From a virus, in IMG/VR virus record IMGVR_UViG_3300046507_000667, positions 1 through 64,000 of that record: 64,000 nucleotides of DNA; one strand, 5' to 3'. Under the pieces are notes generated by a model, which worked only from the letters and a program-made list of their open reading frames with translations, was not told the origin of the DNA and searched no databases. Position 1 is the stretch's first letter; each line of letters begins with the position of its first letter. Both the position numbers and the translations under genes were made by a program. Below, piece by piece: positions 11,771 through 44,634 of this stretch.

Positions 11771-14700
11771 TTATACTTCTTCTTCTTCACCTGAACCATC
11801 ATCCATACTTTCATCACCACCCATATCAGGTTGTGCATTAGCTGGATCATTAGTTTTGGTAATGGTTTCCTTTAATGATGCTTTAAGGAATGCTACCTTT
11901 TCAGTATCTACAAGTGCATTAAAGTCATCCCAATCAAAGTTGGTAATATACTTTTCTAGCATACCTTGTTTCAGTACACCAATAAATGCTTCATGCTGAT
12001 CATCAGGAATACCCTTAACCTTCAAGTTTTGTGTCAATGAATCAAGCAATGCAGAAACGTTATTAATCATTTCTGTAAGATTGGTCATATTCAAGCTTGA
12101 TGGTGATGGGAAAACGATACTGATATTATTTAGATCAAAATTAATGATATCTGCTGGATTATTCTTAGCTTCTTCACTTTGATCAGAACTATCACGTTCA
12201 TTTGATTTATACTCTAGATCATATAGACGACGTAAAAGTTTAGTATATCCTTCACCTAAAATACCTTGCTCAGAAATAATGTCTCGAATAAATCGACTAT
12301 TTTGCATTGAAAGAGTCTTTGCAAAATCAACATTCTCAACTTCTGTCAAATAGGATGAAGGAAGACCAATACCAGAAAAGATATTATTGCTTAACCAGTT
12401 TAAGAAATCATCATCAAGATTTTTAGCTGGCTGTGCATCAATATTCTCAAAAGTAACAGGCTTTTCACCATCTCTGGTGTAGTTTGTATGAATAGTTAAT
12501 TCATAATACTTATATTTTCATATAAGATCAGACTATATCTTTACCCTATAAATAGAGTATTTTCTGTTTCCATTTCACTTGAAATGTACATTATAGTCGT
12601 TGAACGTTCCTCTTAAGAGGCTTCGCTGCTGATCACCTTCATCATTACATGTTAAGGACTTCCAGCAATTAAGAAAATTTAACCACGACAGATGGTTATT
12701 TACCAAAAATTTCACTTAAACGTTCTTCAATATTTTCAGTATAGATGATACGATGTAAAGTAATTCCATTATCTTTACAAAAATTGTCTTTTACTGAATT
12801 ACGTTTAATACTTTCACTAAGATTATGGCCTGTAAATGCCTTAGATGTTTGAAAGTGCTGTTTACCATCGAATTCAATTAAGAAATATTCTGTATCCGAT
12901 ACATGTATTGCAAAATCAAAATAGAGTTTCCTATTTTTATCTGATTTACAATTATCAAAATAAACTTCAGTATCAAAAGAAATTCCATTATTTCTTAAAA
13001 ATTCTTCAATAGTTTTAACTCCTTTAGATACTTTAGGCAATTTACCCATATTACACTGTGGGCAACGCCTATTATCTAAAAATTTTATTGGAGCTACACT
13101 ATATTCATGGCCACATACATCGTGCCTAATTTTAATCTTAGTATCATTATTATAGTACTTCTCTAAAAAAGTATATTCAGAAGCATTTGGAAGCAATTTT
13201 ACTTGTTCTTCAAATTGCTCAGGTGTTTTTGCTCTGAGCTTATGAAGTTTCTTATACTTACAAGTAAAGCATCCACCTTTATTCTGAAGAAGGTCATTTG
13301 GACGAGACTCAAATTCATTACCACAAATAGTATGTCTAAATAAAATCTTGACATTATTTTTGATATATGTACCTAAAGCTTCGTACTCTGTACCCCACTT
13401 TTCTTTTAAAGTGTTGCAAAAATCTTCATGTGAAATTTTCTTTGGTATAGCATGTAAAATAGTAATTAAACTTATTTACATGTTATTTTATCGTGGGAAT
13501 GTAATAGTCGTTAAATTCACCTACCACATTCAAGATAGTCTGCATATCTAGATTATGTACACCGGTAATTTCCTTAGACTTTAAGTCACGGACAACCTGT
13601 TGTACAGATGCTGATGCATCATTATTTAATCCGATATCTACATATACTGCACGCTTATCTGCACCACGTAGTACATTCTGCATTAGAATAGTAACTAGTG
13701 TAGCAATATAAAGCTTTGCAAAGAATAGAATATTGTCAAAAATTGATTGACCACGATTGATATGAATAACTTCTTCAGGTTTTAAATAGACAATACGAAT
13801 CTTTTCATTACCTGTAAGCTTCTTAATAGCTAGACCTGAATAGATTGCATACTTCAATGTCTCATTCTTACGAAGAAGCTTAATATTTGAGTCTCTGCTC
13901 ATCTTATTTGCAAAGACATTAGCAATGAACATTAGACGTGCATCATCTACAGCATCAAGCTGTGGTGAACCATTTGGATTTTCAGCCTTAGCTTGATTAC
14001 CCATACGGTTATTACCATCCATACTGATATCATTACGAGCCATTACCATATTTTGAAGAATGGAACCATTGCCGCCTGATTGTGTAGCTGCTGGCATAAA
14101 GGTTACATTGTCTTCTGAGTCTTGACTCTTATCTGAAGGAAGTACTGTACCATCTGGATCAATTTCAACGATATCAAGATGGATATAACCTAGTACATTA
14201 CCATCAAATTCTAATGGTACAATATTAGCTGGATTGACACGCTTAAAGATAGGACGTTCACGACCACCTACAGGAACATCTTCAGGAGTTACCTTTCCAT
14301 CTTGCGGAGCACCCTTATTCTGTTGAGCAACGTTATTTTGCATAACAGAAGTAGGATCAACTCCAAAGAAGTTCATATTTACATCTTCAGATAAAGATGA
14401 AATTTGACTATGTTCCGCAGCAAGATGGCTAGAATTACCAATAATAAAGTGCTCTTGTAGAAATGTATCTACGTTTTTAAGTGCATCTGGAACTTTACTA
14501 CGATCAATACCAAATGCTTCTTGAACACCTTCAGATAACCACTTAGAATAATCTGATTCAGTACGCTGTGATGCTTCTGTAGACCATTCACTACCTTCCA
14601 TAAGACGTTTATCTTTGTCTGAAAGAATAGTAGTTAGTTTTTGATAAGTTCTTAATGGTTGCTCTCCAGCATGCTCAGAAAGCATCTTCTTGATCTGATC

Positions 14701-15387
14701 ATTCATTGATAGAGCTAAGAAGAATAACTTACCATTCTTAAGAAATGCTGTTACATCTTCTTTTAGCTTTTTATTGATATTATGATCAACAAGAAGTTTC
14801 TCAATACGTTCACGAATTACTTTTTGATCTTCTTCAGCTACACCTTCAGCATTAATATGGATCGATAAAGAATCTTTCGTAAAATCATCTGGAGAAATGA
14901 TTGTATTGGCAATTGTAGTAAGAGCTAAACGCATTTTAGGAATGATCTTAATGATCATATTGTAGGTAGCAATTGCATCACCTACTTTACGACGATTAAG
15001 GTCAATCATACTAGAAAGCTGTTGTTTATTGCTTGTTAGTACTTCATTTTTAATAGCATCTAGTTCTTTCTTAAATTTCTTACCATTCATACGACGCTGT
15101 GCAGCACCACTCTTTTGAGCTAGAGTGATCATTGTATCAGTAACTTCAACGTTATTTGTTGGATTACCTGCACTAGCGAATTGACCTAAAATCTTTGTGA
15201 TATTTAGGTCAATTTTTTGAGTAAGCTTCTTAGTTTTATCAGCTAGATCTAGATCATCATTATCCATCTCTAGCTGTTTTCTTTGAATCTTTTTTGTAGA
15301 ATTGTCAAATCTATCTTGCAGCTTTCTACGTGCTGAAGGAGAAATTGGACTAGTAAAGATACTATTGTCCTGATCCTTATCTGCCAT
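11771..15387 (-). CDS. portal protein, two exons split by a group I intron
   Basis: Exon 1 is 15387-13490 and exon 2 is 12473-11771; joined they give 866 residues. The reading frame is restored as DYYIPTI joined to DGEKPVTFEN. The part around KRAVYVDIGLNNDASA, the following EFNDYYIPTI and the later NIFSGIGLPSSYL match the core of T4 gp20-type portals (FYvDvG ... wlP ... L.iP..yl). The portal forms the ring at the head vertex through which DNA passes. The length is well above T4 gp20 and closer to portals of giant phages. The acidic, Asp/Glu-rich C-terminus ends next to a terminator. Neighbours 15400-18041 are probably head or neck proteins. Without splicing, translation would stop 2 codons into the intron. 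Confidence 0.75.
12474..13489 (-). ncRNA. group I self-splicing intron in the portal gene
   Basis: The core at 12500-12675 (minus strand) has the conserved order TTAATTGCTGG, ATCAGCAGC, GTTCAACGACTA and ATATAGTCTGATC, followed by a CTTATAT-GAAA-ATATAAG hairpin, as in the other two introns of this window. The 5' exon end CCACGAU pairs perfectly with the guide GUCGUGG at 12689-12683, including the U-G pair at the splice site. The last intron base is G at 12474. The endonuclease frame sits in the P1 loop, between the 5' splice site and the guide. Confidence 0.85.
12696..13475 (-). CDS. intron-encoded homing endonuclease, Vsr-like type, start codon unclear
   Basis: The frame is open for 259 codons, but no ATG, GTG or TTG occurs in its first 93 codons. 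The first ordinary start is a TTG at 13196 (166 residues), and it lies after conserved sequence. The N-terminal part has repeated zinc-finger-like units (FRHTICGNEFESR ... CFTC; IRHDVCGHEYS ... CPQC). The C-terminal part carries the catalytic-looking IEFDGKQHF. It is clearly homologous to the protein encoded in the RNAP intron. The stop codon lies 7 bases before the P1 guide. The missing start suggests decay or use of a rare start such as ATT. Confidence 0.6.
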   Translation of the reverse strand: MSLITILHAIPKKISHEDFCNTLKEKWGTEYEALGTYIKNNVKILFRHTICGNEFESRPNDLLQNKGGCFTCKYKKLHKLRAKTPEQFEEQVKLLPNASEYTFLEKYYNNDTKIKIRHDVCGHEYSVAPIKFLDNRRCPQCNMGKLPKVSKGVKTIEEFLRNNGISFDTEVYFDNCKSDKNRKLYFDFAIHVSDTEYFLIEFDGKQHFQTSKAFTGHNLSESIKRNSVKDNFCKDNGITLHRIIYTENIEERLSEIFGK

Positions 15388-30287: not shown

Positions 30288-32216
30288 TTAAATTGCAATA
30301 ATATTGGTTGGTGTTTCGTACTTCTTAGATTTTACAATTGTGAATCCAAGACTATCAAGAATAATATTACCACTTGACATAGTTCTATTAATAATGAAGT
30401 CTGTATCAATCAATGGAATAAACATGTCAGGAATCTTCTTAACTCCAAATGGAATTGAGATTAGACCAAGACCATGCTTTGATAGATCTTCACCATGTTG
30501 CTCAAACAATGCTTCAATTTTCTTACATGCATCTTCTGGTAAATACTCATATAACTCTTCAGAGGATACTTTCTTTAGAGTTAGAATATGCATTGAAGAA
30601 TTTTCATTGATCTGATTGTCCGGAAATAGCGCATTCCAGACTAAAAGACCACGATATGATTGCATTGAATATAAATTAGCATAGTTGCTAAAGTTTTTAA
30701 TAACTGCTGGTGTAAGGAATGCAGTATTGCTATTTTCAACGTCTTTACGAATTTGATTCTCGAACTCAATAAATCGACGATATACACCAATACCATTAAG
30801 AGTCTTAGCCTTAAGAATATCATCCTCAAGAATATCTGTGAAGAATTTCCGTGCAGGTCTAGGAGTTGTTGTCTTTTTGATCTGAATTCCTTTAATATCA
30901 ACGTCTGGTTCATCATAGATGTTACCTTCTTTTGATAATACAAGGCCAGCGTATGATTTCTTGTTTCGTGTTAACATCATACGTAAATAGTGAAACTCGG
31001 ATTTCATATTGATTTTGCTTCGGTCTTCCTCTAAGATATTTAGATTCTTAGTTAACTGCCAGAATACTCGTGCAATAAATTTAGTAATAACGAATGTCAT
31101 TACTGAAATAATAGATGCTTGCTGTTCTTTTGTAACATCTTCCTTCTCAATTCCACCAATATCGAGTACATACTCAAAATATGGGTTCAAATTAAGAAAG
31201 GTTGAGTCAGTATCAGAAATGATAACTGTCTTACGAATTAGCTTTGATACTTTCTCTGATTTATTTGGATATGGATACGGATAGTATACAAAGTATTCAA
31301 ATAATTCATTGAAATATTCTAGTTCATCCTTGATTTCTTCTGGTGGTGCATTTACATCAGGAAAATCATTACGAATGAAATTATCTTTGACGAATTCTTT
31401 AAGTGATGGAAGATTCAATAGTCCAAAGAAATCATTCTTTAGATAGAACTTCTGCATTACTGTAACTGGTAAATCTGTAAAGAATAGTTCAAGTACTTGT
31501 AACTGATTTTCAGTTAAATCAAATTGACATTTTTCTTTATACTTCTCAATAAGCATTTCTGAAGTAATCTCAGGTAGCTCATCAAGAATCATTTCCTCAT
31601 CATATTCTTCTCTACGAATATTTGTAAGGAAATAAAATAGTTCACCAAAGTTTTCAAAGTAATAATTACCACTTAGAAAACCTTCAAATCCAAGAATAGC
31701 ACTAATAATGATCAGCTGACCAGTATATGTAACTGATGGACCTAGATATGGATTAAAGAAAATAAATGATTTTGTACCGAAAGCACCATAGTATGAGTTA
31801 GCTAATACTTTAAGATTCTGTTGCTTTTGATGCAATGAATCATGGATAGCTTGGTCAGCATCATTGATATGCTTGAACATCTCATTCTTAGCTACCTTTC
31901 GTTCTTTTAGTAGATAGTCCAAGAATTTACCGGGAACATTCAGTGCTTGATTACTATTCTTGAATAGTGTATTAAAGCCTGATACAATCGGTTTCTGTTT
32001 ACTACATAGAGTCATCTTTAATAGATCACCCATTGTAGCTGACATCTCAATATTCTTAGCATTATTATTAAGCGTCAAATCCCTATCTTGATATTTGCTA
32101 AGGCAATGTGCTCTTAACTTATCAATATTGATGGATGCAATATCTGTGACCATCACTAATCGATCTAGTACTTCTTGAAAGTACTTTTCGAAAAAAGGAG
32201 ACTTTATTTCTTGCAT
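30288..32216 (-). CDS. family B DNA polymerase, C-terminal half (motifs B and C)
   Basis: 642 residues starting MQEIKSPFFEKYFQ. Motif B is KVLANSYYGAFG (Lys136, Asn140, YYG 142-144), the nucleotide-binding finger helix. Motif C is ISDTDSTF with the catalytic Asp335 and Asp337. There is no exonuclease domain and no motif A; these are in a separate gene on the opposite strand at 35481. The two proteins must assemble to make an active enzyme. The stretch between motifs B and C (about 190 residues) is longer than in T4 gp43. The gene has its own promoter motif at 32286 and ends at a terminator. Confidence 0.9.
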   Translation of the reverse strand: MQEIKSPFFEKYFQEVLDRLVMVTDIASINIDKLRAHCLSKYQDRDLTLNNNAKNIEMSATMGDLLKMTLCSKQKPIVSGFNTLFKNSNQALNVPGKFLDYLLKERKVAKNEMFKHINDADQAIHDSLHQKQQNLKVLANSYYGAFGTKSFIFFNPYLGPSVTYTGQLIIISAILGFEGFLSGNYYFENFGELFYFLTNIRREEYDEEMILDELPEITSEMLIEKYKEKCQFDLTENQLQVLELFFTDLPVTVMQKFYLKNDFFGLLNLPSLKEFVKDNFIRNDFPDVNAPPEEIKDELEYFNELFEYFVYYPYPYPNKSEKVSKLIRKTVIISDTDSTFLNLNPYFEYVLDIGGIEKEDVTKEQQASIISVMTFVITKFIARVFWQLTKNLNILEEDRSKINMKSEFHYLRMMLTRNKKSYAGLVLSKEGNIYDEPDVDIKGIQIKKTTTPRPARKFFTDILEDDILKAKTLNGIGVYRRFIEFENQIRKDVENSNTAFLTPAVIKNFSNYANLYSMQSYRGLLVWNALFPDNQINENSSMHILTLKKVSSEELYEYLPEDACKKIEALFEQHGEDLSKHGLGLISIPFGVKKIPDMFIPLIDTDFIINRTMSSGNIILDSLGFTIVKSKKYETPTNIIAI

Positions 32217-32285
32217 GGAATAGCTTTCCTAAGTTTATTAGTTGTATCTTTATGTTATTCGCTATAAAAATATGGAAGTTCTTGT

Positions 32286-32303
32286 CAATATAATAATATA
32301 TTT
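32286..32303 (-). promoter_or_regulatory. phage promoter motif AAATATATTAT-N5-TG
   Basis: The minus strand reads AAATATATTATTATATTG. It lies 70 bases before the DNA polymerase C-terminal half, and shares its N5 bases with the motif before the unit that contains the N-terminal half (34890). Confidence 0.75.
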
Positions 32304-32444
32304 TCAATTCAATTTTTAATATTAACATAGTAATAGCATTACCCTCATTTATAAATGACAGTAATTATAGTGCTTTGGGACTCAAATGGCCATTTTGGTC
32401 ATGAAGCGCTATCCAAAATAATTTTATCTTTAAAGGTATTTGAC

Positions 32445-32921
32445 ATGTCAAAATCAACACTAGACTTTCTACTAAATGAAGAAGACGACGCATCAGGCGT
32501 AGCTGCTGATGCTGCTGTCAATGGCGATAGCACTGTTACTGATATCGGCGACATCCAAGGTTCCGGTAATGATAACGAAACTCCAGATGCAGACGGCGAA
32601 CTAACCGAAGCTGGTCTTACAACTGGCGATATCGCTCAACTTCGTCAACTAGCTGAAAGCCAAGAACTTATTAGCGAACAGATCAACATCGTTCGTTTAA
32701 ATAAGCAAGCTAAGATTGCTAACCTTACAACACGTTCAGCACTTCTTCTAGCTAAGCGTAAGGGTGATCAGCTATACACCAAGTATGCTAAGCTAAATGC
32801 AGCACGTCTACAAATTCGTGCAATGATCGTTAAGAAGTATGGTGCAAAAGCAGCTTCCTATGCTCGTAAGCTAGTTGCTCATATGAGTACAGCTGCAGGT
32901 GCAGGCGCTCCTAAGAAGTAA
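32445..32921 (+). CDS. hypothetical protein, acidic N-terminus and basic C-terminus
   Basis: 158 residues starting MSKSTLDFLLNEEDD, with AAAGG upstream of the ATG; an earlier in-frame start at 32355 is unlikely. Residues 10-65 are acidic and Gly/Asp-rich, and include ELTEAGLTT, which could be a head-protease site. The rest is a Lys/Arg-rich helix (LLLAKRKGDQLYTKYAKL). The mix suggests a processed, DNA-binding internal head protein. It is followed by a MALFL-family gene. The function is an inference from composition. Confidence 0.6.
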   Translation: MSKSTLDFLLNEEDDASGVAADAAVNGDSTVTDIGDIQGSGNDNETPDADGELTEAGLTTGDIAQLRQLAESQELISEQINIVRLNKQAKIANLTTRSALLLAKRKGDQLYTKYAKLNAARLQIRAMIVKKYGAKAASYARKLVAHMSTAAGAGAPKK

Positions 32922-32934
32922 GTAATTTAATAAG

Positions 32935-32966
32935 ACCCTATACTCCCAAATTAGAGAGTATAGGGT
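32935..32966 (+). terminator. intrinsic terminator
   Basis: ACCCTATACTC (32935-32945) pairs with GAGTATAGGGT (32956-32966), followed by a run of T. It ends the 32445 unit. Confidence 0.85.
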
Positions 32967-33029
32967 TTTTATTTACTTAACTAACACCATAATAGTAAAA
33001 TCCTATTTACAATTTACAAAGGTAAAATC

Positions 33030-33899
33030 ATGGCATTATTTTTAGAATCAGCCCATGCTCCAGTAGCAGATTCTGTTGTTAGTGGTATGTCAATGACTGA
33101 AGCCACTCTTGGTCTAATTGAAATGGCTCAAGAATTTGATTCACTAACAGTTCAAACTTTCTCTGAAGACTTCATGCTACATGAAGAAGCTAAAGAAGAA
33201 GGTAAAATGGACAAATTCAAGGCTAAGTCCAAAGAATTTGTTTCAAAGACTGCATTTAAGCTTAAGCAGTGGATGCAAAAGATTGGTGATTTCATTATCC
33301 ATTTCTGGAATGCATTTAAGCGTAAGTGTGCTGGCCTAGCTGTTCGTGTTGCACTATTCCGTAAGAAAATGGCAGTTCCAAAGCGTGCTGAAGCTGGTCT
33401 TCATGCAATTATGGAAATTGCTAATGAAGGTATGTCGGCAGTTCGTAGCGTAATGAGCAAAGTTGGTACAGAAGGTTTCAATGATGCGGTTGCTTCAGTT
33501 GGTAAGCTCATTGAAAATGCTGGTAAGAAATTTGAATCAGTTGAAAAGGCTGGTGAAGGTACAACTGAAGTACCATTAGGTCCAGTTGCTTCAAAAGCTC
33601 TTCAAACAGCTATGAAGGCTTCAGAACTTTGCCAAGATATCGGTAAACAACTAAAGCGTCATGCCGATTCACTAAAAGCTGACAATGAAGCAGAAGTTGC
33701 ACATGCTCGTAAGGTTGCAGGTGATATGCATCATCTACAAGCTAAGGCTCAAGCTCTTCTAACTCCTTTAGCACCAAAGGTTCTACACTTTATTTCGATG
33801 GCTAAAGCTCAAGCTGAAGCTGCCGGTGTAGATACAAGCAAGTTTGATCAAGCTCATGCAGCAGTTAAGGGCATGGCTGGTGATCATGGTGAAGAGTAA
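33030..33899 (+). CDS. MALFL-family virion-type protein, member A
   Basis: 289 residues starting MALFLESAHAPVADS. The first 50 residues share the family pattern MALFLE, then L..L.E....F, then DF.LHEE, with the three minus-strand members at 51.9-54.6 kb. After this come a basic amphipathic stretch with Trp (FKLKQWMQKIGDFIIHFWNAFKRK) and a long helical, Ala/Lys-rich C-terminal region. A conserved N-terminal module joined to unlike bodies suggests a targeting sequence for packaging in the head, with prohead-protease removal. This role is inferred. Confidence 0.65.
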   Translation: MALFLESAHAPVADSVVSGMSMTEATLGLIEMAQEFDSLTVQTFSEDFMLHEEAKEEGKMDKFKAKSKEFVSKTAFKLKQWMQKIGDFIIHFWNAFKRKCAGLAVRVALFRKKMAVPKRAEAGLHAIMEIANEGMSAVRSVMSKVGTEGFNDAVASVGKLIENAGKKFESVEKAGEGTTEVPLGPVASKALQTAMKASELCQDIGKQLKRHADSLKADNEAEVAHARKVAGDMHHLQAKAQALLTPLAPKVLHFISMAKAQAEAAGVDTSKFDQAHAAVKGMAGDHGEE

Positions 33900-33927
33900 T
33901 CTTCATTAAGTATTAAGCATTAAAACT

Positions 33928-33956
33928 CCCTATACCTCTTTTTAAGGGGTATAGGG
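33928..33956. terminator. bidirectional intrinsic terminator
   Basis: CCCTATACC (33928-33936) pairs with GGTATAGGG (33948-33956), followed by TTTTATTT. It lies between the convergent MALFL member A and the gene at 33964. Confidence 0.85.
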
Positions 33957-33963
33957 GTTTTAT

Positions 33964-34830
33964 TTACTCGCCAATTTCTACATATTTATGGAAGTTATTG
34001 CAATAATATACACCTTCAGATTCTTCTACAACATCGACTTCTTCGCTAGTTACTTCACGAATGACATTGTATTGCTTATCTACGATGTAATATTGTTGAT
34101 CACCTTCAGCATAAAATAGAATTTCACCATCATCATCAACTTCTGAAGTTTCTAGTTCTTCTTCAATTTTAGGCTCTTCCACTATAGGTTGTGGAGTTTT
34201 TCTATGATCCAGAAGAGTATTGTTGACCGGTTCTTTAGTTGCTTCATCTTTCTCAGCAGCTTCTAAACGAGCCAGCATTTTTTCTTCTGATTCTTCTTCA
34301 GTTTCACCAGCATCTCTTTGAATATTACCACCGATAGATGGTAAGCGGACATTAGACTGTAAGAGGAATTTAAGGATTTCTGCAGCAGGAATACCGCCAG
34401 CACCACTTCCGTTTGCTTTGTCCTTTTGAATTTGATTAACAATCTTAAATGCACGATCAAGACGTGACTCTTTAAGATCCTTACCATGCTTAAGAAGACT
34501 TAATTTTAAGTTCTTCATGCTGATAAGGTTTGTAATCTGAGTAGAAATATACATGGGAGAAACCTTTTTAGGTTCTGCAGTTCCCATGCGTCTAGGAGTA
34601 CTAGGCTCATTACCTTCTTGAGCATCCATCAAAGCCATAGTATGTTTACTAGTTCTTTGATAGAGTTGATCAATTTCGGCAATTTCTTTGTTGAGTTGTG
34701 ATTCAACTTCAGCAAAGTCATTATTAGAGAGAATTTCTGTTAAATTACTTAAAGCAATACCAGCAAGAGAATCGTCGTTATCTTGTTGCGAGTTTTCTTC
34801 TTCTGGCGCATCGTGGTCTGTATGGGCCAT
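33964..34830 (-). CDS. hypothetical acidic protein with coiled-coil-like segments
   Basis: 288 residues starting MAHTDHDAPEEENSQQ. The N-terminus and the residue 180-230 region are very acidic. Residues 30-75 and 95-140 are helical. The C-terminal 60 residues have a duplicated strand pattern (EILFYAEGDQQYYIVDKQY, then EGVYYCNNFHKYVEIGE). The layout resembles a scaffold or an internal accessory protein, but no family is recognised. No clear promoter motif precedes it. Confidence 0.65.
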   Translation of the reverse strand: MAHTDHDAPEEENSQQDNDDSLAGIALSNLTEILSNNDFAEVESQLNKEIAEIDQLYQRTSKHTMALMDAQEGNEPSTPRRMGTAEPKKVSPMYISTQITNLISMKNLKLSLLKHGKDLKESRLDRAFKIVNQIQKDKANGSGAGGIPAAEILKFLLQSNVRLPSIGGNIQRDAGETEEESEEKMLARLEAAEKDEATKEPVNNTLLDHRKTPQPIVEEPKIEEELETSEVDDDGEILFYAEGDQQYYIVDKQYNVIREVTSEEVDVVEESEGVYYCNNFHKYVEIGE

Positions 34831-34889
34831 TTTTATGTACCTGCAAAATTCTTGAACTATAAGGATGTTCTTTTTGATTCTTATTTTAC

Positions 34890-34907
34890 AAATATATTAT
34901 TATATTG
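34890..34907 (+). promoter_or_regulatory. phage promoter motif AAATATATTAT-N5-TG
   Basis: AAATATATTATTATATTG is an exact match. It lies 49 bases before the ATG at 34956 and heads the unit that contains the DNA polymerase N-terminal half. Confidence 0.75.
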
Positions 34908-34955
34908 CCATAGAAATATGGTGCTTTTATTCTTATCATTCAAATAAGAGAAATC

Positions 34956-35468
34956 ATGCAGAACACTATTCAAAAACCAATGGATGCAGAAACTTATATG
35001 GCTCGCTGCTTTCTATTTGGAGAGTATAATAAACAGAACTGCGAAAGTAGCTATGAAAAATTAACAGACTTCCAGCTACTTGATATGTTTGATAAAGATC
35101 CAGTATTACTATTTATTGAGACTCTTCGTGGTCCACAAATAAAAGAAAATGGTATTCTATCAGAGAAAGATTGTATTCGTCCTGATTTAGAGAATATCTT
35201 TATGCATGGTGCCTGTGGTCGCTTTGCAATGACACTGTTGTTACTATTTCCAAAAGGAAAGATTGCAAAGCTAAACGACAGTCATCATATTGTATTCTTA
35301 CATTGTGATATTGATGGTACACAATGGGTTTATGACATTCGTGGTCGGCACAAAAGAGATGCGCTTGGTTCGTTCACTATTCTGGATTTAACTCATAAGA
35401 AACATCTCGATCTTATATCAGAATATACAGATAATTACTCAAGTGAGCTTCACGGACCAATTGTATAA
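34956..35468 (+). CDS. putative Cys-His-Asp fold protein (cysteine peptidase or transglutaminase-like)
   Basis: 170 residues starting MQNTIQKPMDAETY, with AAGAGAAATC upstream. The central block GACGRFAMTLLL (Cys87), then DSHHIVFLHCDIDG (His110/111), then WVYDIRGRHK (Asp127) has the order Cys, His, Asp of papain-like folds, with the expected strand and Gly pattern. It could cleave or modify a peptide bond, or be an inactive relative. It is first in the operon with the polymerase N-terminal half. The call is by motif only. Confidence 0.4.
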   Translation: MQNTIQKPMDAETYMARCFLFGEYNKQNCESSYEKLTDFQLLDMFDKDPVLLFIETLRGPQIKENGILSEKDCIRPDLENIFMHGACGRFAMTLLLLFPKGKIAKLNDSHHIVFLHCDIDGTQWVYDIRGRHKRDALGSFTILDLTHKKHLDLISEYTDNYSSELHGPIV

Positions 35469-35480
35469 GGAAAGGATCGA

Positions 35481-37989
35481 ATGTCAGAAACAGTAAAACA
35501 ACTCCTTTTTGCACAAGCAGTAACTAATCACTTCAATGGTAAGACTAAATCTTTCATTGTAGAAAAAGTTAAAAATAAGACTACAGGTAAAGTTAAGAAA
35601 CGTGTAATCTTTGATGAAAATCCAGACTTTCACTTTTATAAGACTAAGAAAGGTCATGAACTGGATTATGCTGCAAAATGTATTCCAGTCGAGAAAGTTG
35701 AACGTATTGACTGTAAGTATAATCAGTTATTTGAACTAATTGCTAAGATTACTCATAAAGAAGAAGAATATGAGCAAATCATTAGTGAGAATAAGCGTTA
35801 TAAGCTAGCAGGTCTTCATAATGATTATAATATCCATCAGTCAGATGTAGTCTTAGATGACTATCTCATGATGAAATGGGCAAGAGAAAATAAAGATGTA
35901 ACTGAACCAATTGCACTTCATAAGGCATATTTCGATATTGAGGTGGATATCATCAATTATGATGGTTTTCCACAACCAGAAGAAGCGCCTTGTGAAGTTA
36001 ACTTTATTTCATATCTAAGTGATAAGAATCTTATTCTAAATTCATATATTCTCTATAATCGTGAGAATACTAGTATGCGTGAATTCCTACGCAAAGCTAA
36101 AATGGATAAAGAAACTAATTCACTAGATACTGCTTTAGGTAATGAATGGGCATTAAAGGTACTGGAAGAGCATTTCACAGAACCAAATCCTAAGTCAAAA
36201 TCATCAAAGCCACTAAAGGGTCTATGTGTACGAGTCTTTACAAGTGAGCAGGAATTAATCAAAGCTTTCTTTGATGATGTTCATGAAGACAAACCTGATT
36301 TCTTAGGCGGATGGAATAGTCACTTCGATATTCAGACTATTAAATCTAGGCTTGAAAATCATTTAGATGAAAAAGCAGTCAATTTCTTTTGCCCTTCAGA
36401 CTTTCCATTTAAGAAAGTGGATATTCGAAAAGATGAGCATGCTATTGACGTGTCAGATAGAGCGCATGAATTCTCTATCTCAGGCTACACTATCTTCTGT
36501 GACTTATTGTATTACTATGCTTCAATTCGAAAGACTAGTAAGGGTAAGAAAGAATCATGGAAGTTAGGTGATATTCTTCTTGAAGAACTAGGTGAATCTA
36601 AGTTCGAATATGAAGGTTCGATTAAAGATGCAGCATACATGAATTATGAGGCATTCTTAATCTACTCACAGATTGACTCATATCGTCTATATCAGCTTGA
36701 AGAAAAGAATGGCGACGTTGACCTTCTATATGGTATGTCATTGCTTACACATACCCGAATTGAAAAGGTTATGCGTAAGACGATTTCACTGAAGAACCTA
36801 GCAACAACAATGCTATTTGATAATGGTTATGCACTATGTAATAACCATAATAAGTTTATCAAGACCGGAGAGAAGAAGAAATTCCGGGGAGCATTAACCA
36901 TAAGTGCTCTTTAAATATACTTAATTGCTGGAAAACCCTCTGCTAAAGGGCAACTAGCAGCTATTTGATCTGCCAAGGTCACACAGAAAAGGTACTACAT
37001 GAAAGAGATCATTTTTAATGATTGGTTGAAATCATTTCTTGATTATGAAATTGATTTCAATGCAGTTAAACCAACACTCATCCGTTTATATGAGGGTGAT
37101 AAATCCTTTGAAGATTTTACAATCTCATATAGTATGAAAAAGGGAGTAATTCCTAATTTCACTATTCGAGAGGATGAATTAAATGGTGTAAAGGGTATTG
37201 TTTTACAAAAAGCAAATCGCCGATCTACTCGACATGTATTTTTACAAGATTTACCGTATAAAGTACGTGCTGTGGAATATAATAAGAAAAGTATGCTATG
37301 GCGTCTTGATCTTTATTATAAAAAAGAATTGTATTACTATCCTAGTGGTGAACGTCGTTATGATCATCGACTTCATTTAGATGGTATCAATGATAATGAT
37401 GAATATTGCTTTTCATATATTCCAAAGCAGTATGAAGCATTTAGTATTATGAAAGGATTTATCGATCCATTGATTATTGATAAACCTAGAGAGAAAGGTC
37501 CAGCTCAAATCAAAAAGAAAGCAGATCAAAAATTCACGAAACGACCCTTGGCGATTAAGTAGTTCAACGACTATTATGTACATCTCAAGTGAGATGGAAA
37601 CAGTATACTCTGATGATATAGTCTGATCTTATGTGAAAGCATAAGTAGGTAGATTAACGACCTACCGACAACACGATGTTGTGGCAAACCCTAACCTGAT
37701 TGCAAAGGTTGGAATTGAGGTTAATGGTTCTAAAACTCATAATATTTTTGAAAATGTAATTGACGAAGACTTGGCTTCACTATATCCGTCTATTATTCTT
37801 TCATCTAATATTGACTCTGAAACTATGATCGGCAAGATCTTAGCTGAAGATGATGATGAGTATTTAGGGCTCTTCGGTGAAATGATTGCTGAAGCTGATT
37901 TAGTATCTATTGGTAATCATTTTCTAAATCTACCATCTTTTGAAGATGTTGTAGAAAATATTGGCGATTTCCTTCTGGAAGAAGCATAA
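35481..37989 (+). CDS. family B DNA polymerase, N-terminal half (exonuclease and motif A), two exons
   Basis: Exon 1 is 35481-36894 and exon 2 is 37676-37989; joined they give 575 residues. Exonuclease motifs are present: Exo I with Asp152 and Glu154 (FDIEVD), Exo II with Asp283 (NSHFDIQTI), Exo III with Tyr395 and Asp399 (YSQID). Motif A is DLASLYPSI with catalytic Asp503. The splice restores FRGAYVVANPN, a typical family B sequence. The protein ends about 70 residues after motif A; motifs B and C are in the minus-strand gene at 30288. It starts 12 bases after the Cys-His-Asp gene, and its stop overlaps the next ATG. Confidence 0.9.
36895..37675 (+). ncRNA. group I self-splicing intron in the DNA polymerase gene
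   Basis: The 5' exon end GAGCAU (36889-36894) pairs perfectly with the guide GUGCUC at 36904-36909, with U-G at the splice site. The core has TTAATTGCTGG, CAACTAGCAGC, GTTCAACGACTA and ATATAGTCTGATC, then a P9-like hairpin CTTATG-TGAAAG-CATAAG. The last base is G at 37675. The ORF is in the loop between the second and third core elements (P6), unlike the other two introns, where it is in P1. Confidence 0.85.
36999..37562 (+). CDS. intron-encoded protein of unrecognised family
   Basis: 187 residues starting MKEIIFNDWLKSF, with AAAAGG before the ATG. It is inside the polymerase intron. It has no FDGKQHF motif, GIY-YIG, LAGLIDADG or clear HNH signature, although RRYDHRLHLDGINDND has His and Asn in an HNH-like order. 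Strand-rich centre (VRAVEYNKKSMLWRLDLYYK) and a basic C-terminus. By position it is probably a homing endonuclease or a splicing-helper protein. Composition is AT-rich, and the frame is intact. Confidence 0.65.
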   Translation: MKEIIFNDWLKSFLDYEIDFNAVKPTLIRLYEGDKSFEDFTISYSMKKGVIPNFTIREDELNGVKGIVLQKANRRSTRHVFLQDLPYKVRAVEYNKKSMLWRLDLYYKKELYYYPSGERRYDHRLHLDGINDNDEYCFSYIPKQYEAFSIMKGFIDPLIIDKPREKGPAQIKKKADQKFTKRPLAIK

Positions 37990-41855: not shown

Positions 41856-44634
41856 ATGAATTTAGATGTGTTAAATATTGACGACTTTATTAAGGTTAAT
41901 GGGATTAAGCAAGTATCTTCACCATTTATCTTTGCTGCAGATAAAACACCTGATCCAGAAGGTATCTTCTCATATGATATTTTTGGTCGAGTTGGTTCTG
42001 TAGCTCGTAAAGTCAATTATGGTTATGTGGATCTTAAACGAGAGTTTATTCATCCATTCGTATACAATATCTTGCAATCAGTTTATCGTAATCTTCCTCT
42101 GATTATTTCAGGTGATAAATACGTTAAACTTGGTCCAGATGGTACCATTCTCAATGCTAAGGACGATGATCCTGAAGGTCAGACAGGTATTGACTTTATT
42201 ATTGATAATTGGGAAAAGATTTCTTGGGAATCAAAATCTTCTACAGCTAGTCGTGAAAAGAAGTTAGCTATTCTTAGTGATTTTTCACGCAGTGAAATCT
42301 TCGTTACTAAGTGGCTAATTATTCCTGCAATGTATCGTGATATTAATTTACATTCACAAGATACAGGCAAGATTAGTATGGATGAAGTTAATTCATTTTA
42401 TAATAAGTTAATTAATCTTACAAATTCTGAATCAATTACTTTTGCTTCAAGTACTAATACTCAGTCTGCAGTGCAGATGAATCTAGTAGATATTCATAAC
42501 TATTTAACAAAGAAACTTTCAGGTAAGCGTGGTGTTATTCGTCAAGCTGTTATGGGTAAGACTATTGACCATGCAGCAACAAACGTTATTTCTGCACCAA
42601 GGTTCAATGATGAACACTATAAGAATCAGCTAGTACCTTATAACTATATTGGAATTCCATTGTATGTTATTTGTGCTACATTCTATCCATATTTCTTAAA
42701 ATGGATGGAAGATTATTTTTATGGTATTGAACAAAATGCTGAATTCGTATTCGGTGGTCAAGTATATGACTCCAGTATGGCCGCTAATGTAGTCAATTCA
42801 GAATCTATCCGTAAATTGATTACTGCTTACGTTAAAGATAAGACAAAACGTATTCGTACTGCACCATTTTCACTTAATAAGACAAATAGAAAGCTACAGT
42901 TCCGTGATGCTATTATTAATTTCCGTGACTATACTCTAACTGATCTTTTATTTGAAGCTGCAGAGCAAATTGTTAGTAATAAGTTAGTCCTTAGTACTCG
43001 TTATCCTGTTACTGGTTCAGAATCTATTATTATGAACAAAGTACGGATTTTAACTACAGAAGAAACTATTGATATGACACCAAGGCTTCGTACCCTTAGT
43101 GAATCAGCTAAGTTTCAATATAGTAAGTATCCAAGCTTCCCATATGATAGTACTGGCGCGGTTATTGCAGATCATGTACGTTGGATTGATTCCCTAGTAC
43201 CAAATAACTCCTTCCTAGCTGGTATGGGTGGTGACTATGACGGTAGTTTTGCAATAAATTTATAGATTGTGCTAAAATGGGTGGTGATTAAACAAAATCA
43301 TAATTTGTATATAGGATTATGATTATGGCAAAAGCACTAACTCTAGCTGAATTTCAAGAAAGGATTTCAGCAAAATATGACAATGAGTATTCATTAATTT
43401 TCTTCAAAGCACTAGCAGTTAGAGCTCCTATCATTCTTAGACATAGTTGTGGACATGAATTTGAATCTACTTTTCAATCATTTGTAAATGATTCTAAAGG
43501 TAAATGCAAAGTATGCTATTTACAAACTAGTAAAGGAAGACAAAAAGCTCTTACTGAAGATGAGTTAATAAAAAGGCTTATTAATACTGAATATAACTAT
43601 ATATCAGGATTTATTAATACTAAGAAGAAAGCTTTATTTAGACATAGCTGCGGACATGAATTTGAATCTCTACCAAGAGATATTTATAGTAATAAGTCAG
43701 GCTGTCCAAAATGTGCTAATAAAAATAGAGGTAAATATCAAGTTAATAAAAATTATTTAGAATTACTACTATCTGTTGAAGATGGTAATGAATATAAATG
43801 GTTAGATAAGTTTAGGGATAATAAAACACTTACGCTTATTAAACACTTAACTTGCAATAATGAATATAAAGTTCGTCCAAATGATTTTCAACAAGGTTAT
43901 CGTTGTCCATTTTGTTCTGAAAAATTTCCTACAGAATCAAAAAGTGTTAAGCACATAATAAAACGTCTTACCGAATTAAATATTTCTTTCGCTAGAGAAT
44001 TTACTGATTCTAGATGTCGTTTTAAAAATGTGCTTAGATTTGATTTTGCTATTGATTTACCAGATAGCAGGAAACTTTTAATAGAATTTGATGGTAAATA
44101 ACATTTTCATCCCTTAATTAATGAAGATGTATTTGAACTTCAAATTGAAAGAGATTTAGTTAAGAATCAGTTTTGTAAAATATACTCTAAGGAGTATGTA
44201 TTAGAAAGAATTTCTTATAAAGAAAATGTAGAAGATAAATTAGTTGAAATATTATTAAAACACAATCTTGTAGAGTATTGCCGTCATTAAACTCTCTTAA
44301 TTGCTGGAAACCCTTAAATGGCAATCAGCAGCGAATCTTTTTATGAAGAACGTTCAACGACTATTATGTACTTATCAAATGATAAGGAAACAGAGAGCAT
44401 CGAAAGATGAAGATATAGTCTGGTCTTATATGAAAATATAAGTATGATAGTGTAATAAACTATCGCAACACTAAGGATACATTCCGTATTATTGGCCTAT
44501 TCACTCAAGAAGCTAATGATGAAGCTAAAGGTATTATGGAATCACCATTAAATTTCATTGACCCATCAGGCAGTTTAATGCGTGGTGTAGGTCGTGAAGC
44601 AGGTCTAGCTTTATATATGCTTACAAAGAAATAA
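41856..44634 (+). CDS. RNA polymerase beta'-like subunit, catalytic piece, two exons
   Basis: Exon 1 is 41856-43244 and exon 2 is 44476-44634; joined they give 515 residues. Residues 30-45 (GIFSYDIFGRVGSVARK) match the beta' N-terminus. SGKRGVIRQAVMGKTIDHAA matches the conserved beta' region with GKR.D. The splice restores GGDYDGDTFRIIG, the Mg-binding NADFDGD motif with all three Asp. AAAGGAAC lies upstream of the start. Splicing is essential, because the unspliced product would end before the third Asp. It would combine with the beta'-C piece at 6563 and beta-N at 45927. Confidence 0.85.
43245..44475 (+). ncRNA. group I self-splicing intron in the RNAP catalytic motif
   Basis: The 5' exon end AUGACGGU (43237-43244) pairs perfectly with the guide GCCGUCAU at 44280-44287, including U-G at the splice site. 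The core TTAATTGCTGG, ATCAGCAGC, GTTCAACGACTA and ATATAGTCTGGTC follows. The P9-like hairpin and the GATAGT/ACTATC stem come next, and the last base is G at 44475. The endonuclease frame fills the P1 loop; its last codons overlap the guide. Sequence similarity to the portal intron is high in the core. Confidence 0.85.
43319..44290 (+). pseudogene. intron homing endonuclease, Vsr-like type, with an internal stop
   Basis: The frame starts MIMAKALTLAEFQ and runs to a TAA at 44099-44101, then stays open for another 62 codons to a second stop at 44288. Three zinc-finger-like units (LRHSCGHEFEST, FRHSCGHEFESL, IKHLTCNNEYK, each with a CxxC) precede the catalytic motif. The motif reads IEFDGK, stop, HFHP, where its portal relative has IEFDGKQHFQ. 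A CAA to TAA change would explain it. The product would lack the C-terminal 62 residues and the catalytic His. Suppression of the stop is the alternative. Confidence 0.7.

What the first reader, a model, noticed from the sequence alone, without database searches (positions are those of the whole stretch)
30288..37989. DNA polymerase split into two divergent genes between motifs A and B
The plus-strand gene at 35481 has all three exonuclease motifs and motif A, then ends. Motifs B and C are in a minus-strand gene starting at 32216. The pieces read away from each other, 3.3 kb apart, with four other genes between. Neither can be active alone. Split gp43 genes are known to me from some T4-like Aeromonas phages, and split PolB from an archaeon, but divergent orientation on opposite strands is unusual. 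It implies inversion or transposition after a split and assembly in trans.
Basis: partly seen in the sequence, partly recalled or inferred. Interest (0 to 1): 0.85.

Follow-up and report, generated by a model that had tools for sequence, protein, structure and literature searches.

The report
Jumbo-phage DNA polymerase in two genes
A giant phage encodes its DNA-copying enzyme as two separate proteins from genes pointing away from each other; this is the normal, already described arrangement in phiKZ-related jumbo phages, and the only extra here is a likely self-splicing intron inside one of the two genes.

Summary
The split is real but not new. G000 (249-kb virus record) holds one family B polymerase in two genes: an exonuclease + motif A subunit (+ strand, 35481-37989) and a motif B + C subunit (- strand, 30288-32216). 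No other PolB, PolA or PolIII-alpha was found. It lies in a second exon (37679-37989) behind a 784-nt group I intron (36895-37678) with an orphan 187-aa ORF. The spliced product is 574 aa and reads KFRGAFVANPN through the junction, like intron-free relatives. Divergent orientation is no recent inversion: Yersinia phage phiR1-37 has the same divergent pair around the same two genes. AR9, BpSp, Staphylococcus jumbo phages, LPJP1, phiKZ (gp082/gp050) and 79 IMG/VR loci share the split; spacing and strand vary. The literature calls it the "split subunit DNA polymerase" (Cornelissen 2012, cited in PMC5105663 and PMC5694885; AR9 in PMC5312081). Most likely the two proteins assemble in trans into a T4-like polymerase; assembly was not tested here, but knock-down of either phiKZ gene impairs infection (PMC12571901). 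New member of a known kind.

The parts
30288..32216 (-). Catalytic subunit gene of the split family B DNA polymerase, 642 aa, motifs B (KVLANSYYG) and C (SDTDS)
   Evidence: Pfam PF20286 4.8e-51, PF00136 1.1e-14; phrog_2927 2.7e-103; phiR1-37 g167/g164 43%, AR9 gp152 33%
35481..36894 (+). Exon 1 of the exonuclease/motif A subunit gene (exonuclease motifs I-III)
   Evidence: PF03104 5.6e-13; phrog_3011 2e-54; phiR1-37 g170 47.5%
36895..37678 (+). Group I intron, 784 nt
   Evidence: RF00028 32 bits, E 3.2e-6, below gathering score; P1 GAGCAU/GUGCUC with U.G at the 5' splice site, 5-bp P10, terminal G; 87% identity over 76 nt to the 3' end of the insertion in the polA gene of Enterococcus phage Pumpjack, homologous terminal G
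36999..37562 (+). Intron ORF, 187 aa, orphan
   Evidence: No match in PHROGs, phages, plasmids, IMG/VR, GTDB contigs, PDB or elsewhere in G000; only weak sub-threshold Pfam hits
37679..37989 (+). Exon 2 of the exonuclease/motif A subunit gene: motif A (DEDLASLYPSII) and the conserved tail of the subunit
   Evidence: PF00136 0.0025; phrog_3011 1.4e-8; alignment A3
32355..32921 (+). Homologue of phiR1-37 g168 (virion protein), conserved neighbour
   Evidence: blastp 41%, 9e-29; phrog_26909 virion structural protein
33964..34830 (-). Homologue of phiR1-37 g169, conserved neighbour
   Evidence: blastp 30%, 1.6e-23

Best explanation
This is the replicative DNA polymerase of a phiR1-37-like, phiKZ-related jumbo phage. 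It is an ancient split-subunit family B enzyme. The N subunit (574 aa after splicing) supplies the 3'-5' exonuclease and the palm strand with motif A. The C subunit (642 aa) supplies fingers (motif B), the rest of the palm (motif C) and thumb. The two fold together in trans into one T4 gp43-like active site. A group I intron with an orphan ORF interrupts the N gene between the exonuclease domain and motif A and must be spliced out. Shown: the two genes, complementary motifs, shared split point, intron boundaries by anatomy and comparison, shared gene order with phiR1-37. Inferred: self-splicing, heterodimer assembly, activity.
For: Single PolB in 249 kb, no PolA/PolIII-alpha. The N profile maps to RB69 gp43 residues 81-438; the C profile maps to RB69 705-769 and to Tgo 453-562 around motif B: no overlap. 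Catalytic motif residues conserved in 14 N and 19 C sequences. AlphaFold: C pLDDT 88.5; N relative L032 pLDDT 79.3 with low confidence around the motif A strand; both hit RB69 gp43 best. phiR1-37 g167/g168/g169/g170 have the same order and orientation. Same split in AR9, BpSp, SA1, S6, Madawaska, LPJP1, phiKZ gp082 + gp050 and JD-Fnp1, 79 IMG/VR loci. Literature: PMC5105663, PMC5694885, PMC5312081, PMC12571901 knock-downs of phiKZ 050 and 082. Intron.
Against: Physical association and activity were not tested and no complex could be modelled here. The Rfam intron match is below the gathering score and its 5' half is misplaced over the ORF, so the 5' core rests on consensus matches. No intron-free sibling of this exact phage is available. 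C-subunit TM-scores to RB69 are low (0.3-0.43).
Confidence: 0.94

Rival explanations
1. The two pieces are decayed remnants of one or two polymerases and the phage replicates with a host enzyme.
For: The + strand piece is broken by in-frame stops before motif A.
Against: Catalytic motifs intact in both pieces; both subunits conserved at similar length across relatives; the break coincides with a group I intron whose removal restores the relatives' sequence; no other polymerase in the genome.
Confidence: 0.02
2. A recent local inversion or transposition split a contiguous gp43 gene in this phage.
For: Divergent orientation 3.3 kb apart; T4-like phages have contiguous gp43 (general knowledge).
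Against: phiR1-37 shares orientation and neighbouring genes; no relative examined has a fused gene; phiKZ and JD-Fnp1 are split at the same place.
Confidence: 0.02
3. The polymerase is made without splicing: exonuclease piece and motif A piece are translated separately, giving three polypeptides.
For: Each piece is an ORF with a possible start codon.
Against: The insert has group I anatomy and a 3' end homologous to another phage's polymerase-gene intron; intron-free relatives have one continuous gene; a 102-aa motif A peptide would begin in mid-fold.
Confidence: 0.03

Closest known systems
Yersinia phage phiR1-37 g170 / g167-g164 (AJ972879)
   Same: Same two subunits (47.5% and 43% identity), same divergent orientation, same two genes between (g168, g169)
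   Different: There the C gene, not the N gene, is interrupted; the window has two further ORFs between the genes
phiKZ-related split subunit DNA polymerase (OBP; SPN3US gp18/gp44; phiKZ gp082/gp050)
   Same: Same split between motif A and motif B, two separate genes
   Different: Very divergent sequence (about 20%); phiKZ genes on the same strand, 35 kb apart
Bacillus phage AR9 gp132 (exonuclease and partial catalytic domain) / gp152 (catalytic subunit)
   Same: Same subunits and split point
   Different: Genes on the same strand about 15 kb apart, no intron in them
Staphylococcus phage Madawaska exonuclease and catalytic subunits
   Same: Split polymerase with exon junctions annotated in both genes
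   Different: Different insertion site in the N gene; genes on the same strand
T4/RB69 gp43
   Same: Fold and motif order of the combined enzyme
   Different: Single gene and polypeptide

Membership tests
phiKZ-related split subunit family B DNA polymerase | Exonuclease and motif A on one gene, motifs B and C on another | tested here: met
phiKZ-related split subunit family B DNA polymerase | C subunit belongs to divDNApol (PF20286) | tested here: met
   4.8e-51
phiKZ-related split subunit family B DNA polymerase | Only replicative polymerase, in a jumbo phage with its own multisubunit RNA polymerase | tested here: met
   RNAP beta subunit at 41856-43265
phiKZ-related split subunit family B DNA polymerase | Subunits bind each other and polymerise DNA | not testable with these tools
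   needs bench work
Group I intron | P1 with U.G at the 5' splice site, P10, terminal G | tested here: met
   3' end homologous to the Pumpjack polA insertion
Group I intron | Catalytic core recognised by RF00028 | tested here: inconclusive
   32 bits, E 3.2e-6, below gathering score 50; only the 3' core placed convincingly
Group I intron | Self-splicing in vivo or in vitro | not testable with these tools
   needs RNA
Homing endonuclease (intron ORF 36999-37562) | Match to a known homing nuclease family (HNH, GIY-YIG, LAGLIDADG, Vsr-type) | tested here: not met
T4-like split gp43 (Aeromonas phages) | Pieces closest to T4-like gp43 | tested here: not met
   Best relatives are phiR1-37, AR9 and other jumbo phages

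The most novel reading that the evidence does not exclude
The orphan intron ORF could be an undescribed homing nuclease or splicing helper, so that assembly of the polymerase is gated by splicing of the motif A exon.
Probability: 0.1. Interest if true: 0.35.

Novelty: new member of a known kind. Interest (0 to 1): 0.15.

Why it matters
It adds a well-resolved phiR1-37-like member to the split-subunit polymerases, and the profile search places motif A of phiKZ itself on gp082, away from motifs B and C on gp050. A recent overview described the group 1 enzyme as merely lacking a fused exonuclease. One active site built from two proteins is easy to test, but the split itself is known.

Tried and rejected
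Single-sequence pattern scan of IMG/VR with the C protein found nothing; the alignment query found 79 loci. A first intron model ending at G37681 gave RGALANPN, one residue short of relatives; ending at G37678 gives RGAFVANPN, a 5-bp P10 and the homologous terminal G. Rfam on 12 kb missed the intron; a short stretch found it. The N scan of IMG/VR returned mostly T4-like or other polymerases outside this group. Trans-splicing considered and rejected: both N exons lie in order on one strand.

Full report
Observation. The - strand ORF 30288-32216 (642 aa) carries motif B (KVLANSYYG) and motif C (SDTDS) and matches divDNApol PF20286 (4.8e-51) and DNA_pol_B PF00136 (1.1e-14). The + strand ORF 35481-36914 carries the family B exonuclease domain (PF03104 5.6e-13) but stops before motif A. 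Motif A (DEDLASLYPSII) is in a separate ORF, 37681-37989. Between them lies a 187-aa ORF (36999-37562). The C and N genes are divergent and 3.26 kb apart with four ORFs between. The rest of the 249,347-base record has no second PolB, no PolA and no PolIII-alpha. The record may be incomplete, so absence elsewhere is not absolute.

The intron. Joining 36894 to 37679 gives a 574-aa protein reading KFRGAFVANPN, matching phiR1-37 (KFQGAFVLDP), AR9 (KIKGAFVANPN) and intron-free IMG/VR relatives. The 5' exon GAGCAU pairs with GUGCUC (P1, U.G at the splice site), the 3' exon UUGUG pairs with CAUAA (P10), and the intron ends in G. Rfam finds RF00028 at 3.2e-6, below its gathering score. A 76-nt stretch up to the intron's last base is 87% identical to the 3' end of the insertion in the polA gene of Enterococcus phage Pumpjack, ending at the homologous G. 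Joining the Pumpjack exons at the corresponding sites gives a standard polA motif (SNPNLQQQP; my reading of the sequence). The genome has five group I intron matches above the Rfam cut-off and more below. The intron ORF has no relative in any collection searched.

Comparison. phiR1-37 has g167 (-, C subunit, itself interrupted before g164), g168 (+), g169 (-) and g170 (+, N subunit). Window 32355-32921 is homologous to g168 (9e-29) and 33964-34830 to g169 (1.6e-23). The divergent arrangement is therefore most simply inherited. AR9, BpSp, SA1, S6, Madawaska and LPJP1 have the same two subunits with other spacings and strands. Madawaska is annotated as exonuclease and catalytic subunits with exon junctions in both. 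In 79 IMG/VR loci the C subunit is a stand-alone gene or one broken by insertions. In 13 loci the N gene lies within 10 kb: divergent in 7 (L030, L039, L057, L067, L075, L091, L094), co-directional in 6 (L032, L058, L065, L066, L082, L083), some being near-duplicates; L039 is phiR1-37. No fused gene was seen. N-gene interruptions in BpSp, Madawaska, LPJP1 and L083 are at other sites.

phiKZ. PHIKZ050 aligns with the C subunit along its length and shows no motif A. The N profile finds PHIKZ082 (3.1e-26, with the motif A region at 0.0025), which reads IADLDIVSTYPNV. JD-Fnp1 also matches (2.6e-64). The split between motifs A and B is thus shared by the phiKZ-related phages examined.

Structure. 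N maps to RB69 gp43 81-438 and C to later regions. AlphaFold models of C (pLDDT 88.5) and of an N relative (79.3) both match RB69 gp43 best. Low confidence at the motif A strand of the lone N subunit fits a need for its partner, or a thin alignment there (inference).

Literature. The phiKZ-related split subunit DNA polymerase is named in PMC5105663 and PMC5694885, crediting Cornelissen et al. 2012 on phage OBP (that paper itself was not read). AR9 gp132 and gp152 are described as partial and catalytic polymerase subunits in PMC5312081. PMC12571901 lists both phiKZ 050 and 082 among knock-downs with phenotypes. PMC7824862 notes only that the group 1 enzyme has no fused exonuclease.

Verdict. 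Ordinary for this phage group, with a correction to the finding (group I intron before motif A). New member of a known kind.

Noticed in passing
window 11771-15387 (-): A gene for a virion structural protein (phrog_3004, weak portal match) is interrupted by a group I intron (12509-12752, 84.5 bits) carrying an HNH endonuclease ORF (12696-13196).
   Followed up: partly
window 41856-44500 (+): An RNA polymerase beta subunit gene is followed by an HNH endonuclease ORF (43319-44101) and a group I intron core (44243-44442, 81 bits). The endonuclease reading frame appears to continue past its stop at 44099-44101, so it may be truncated.
   Followed up: partly
G000 outside the window: 65382, 72871, 105854, 173352-174451, 186426: Further group I intron matches, some below cut-off; the genome is intron-rich.
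   Followed up: no
L088, L090, L091, L094, L095: The C-subunit gene is interrupted at the motif C codons (about residue 335) in several IMG/VR relatives, and near motif B (about residue 132) in others: repeated insertion at catalytic codons.
   Followed up: no
L082 9917-13782: C and N genes are adjacent, co-directional and overlapping, in the order C then N.
   Followed up: no
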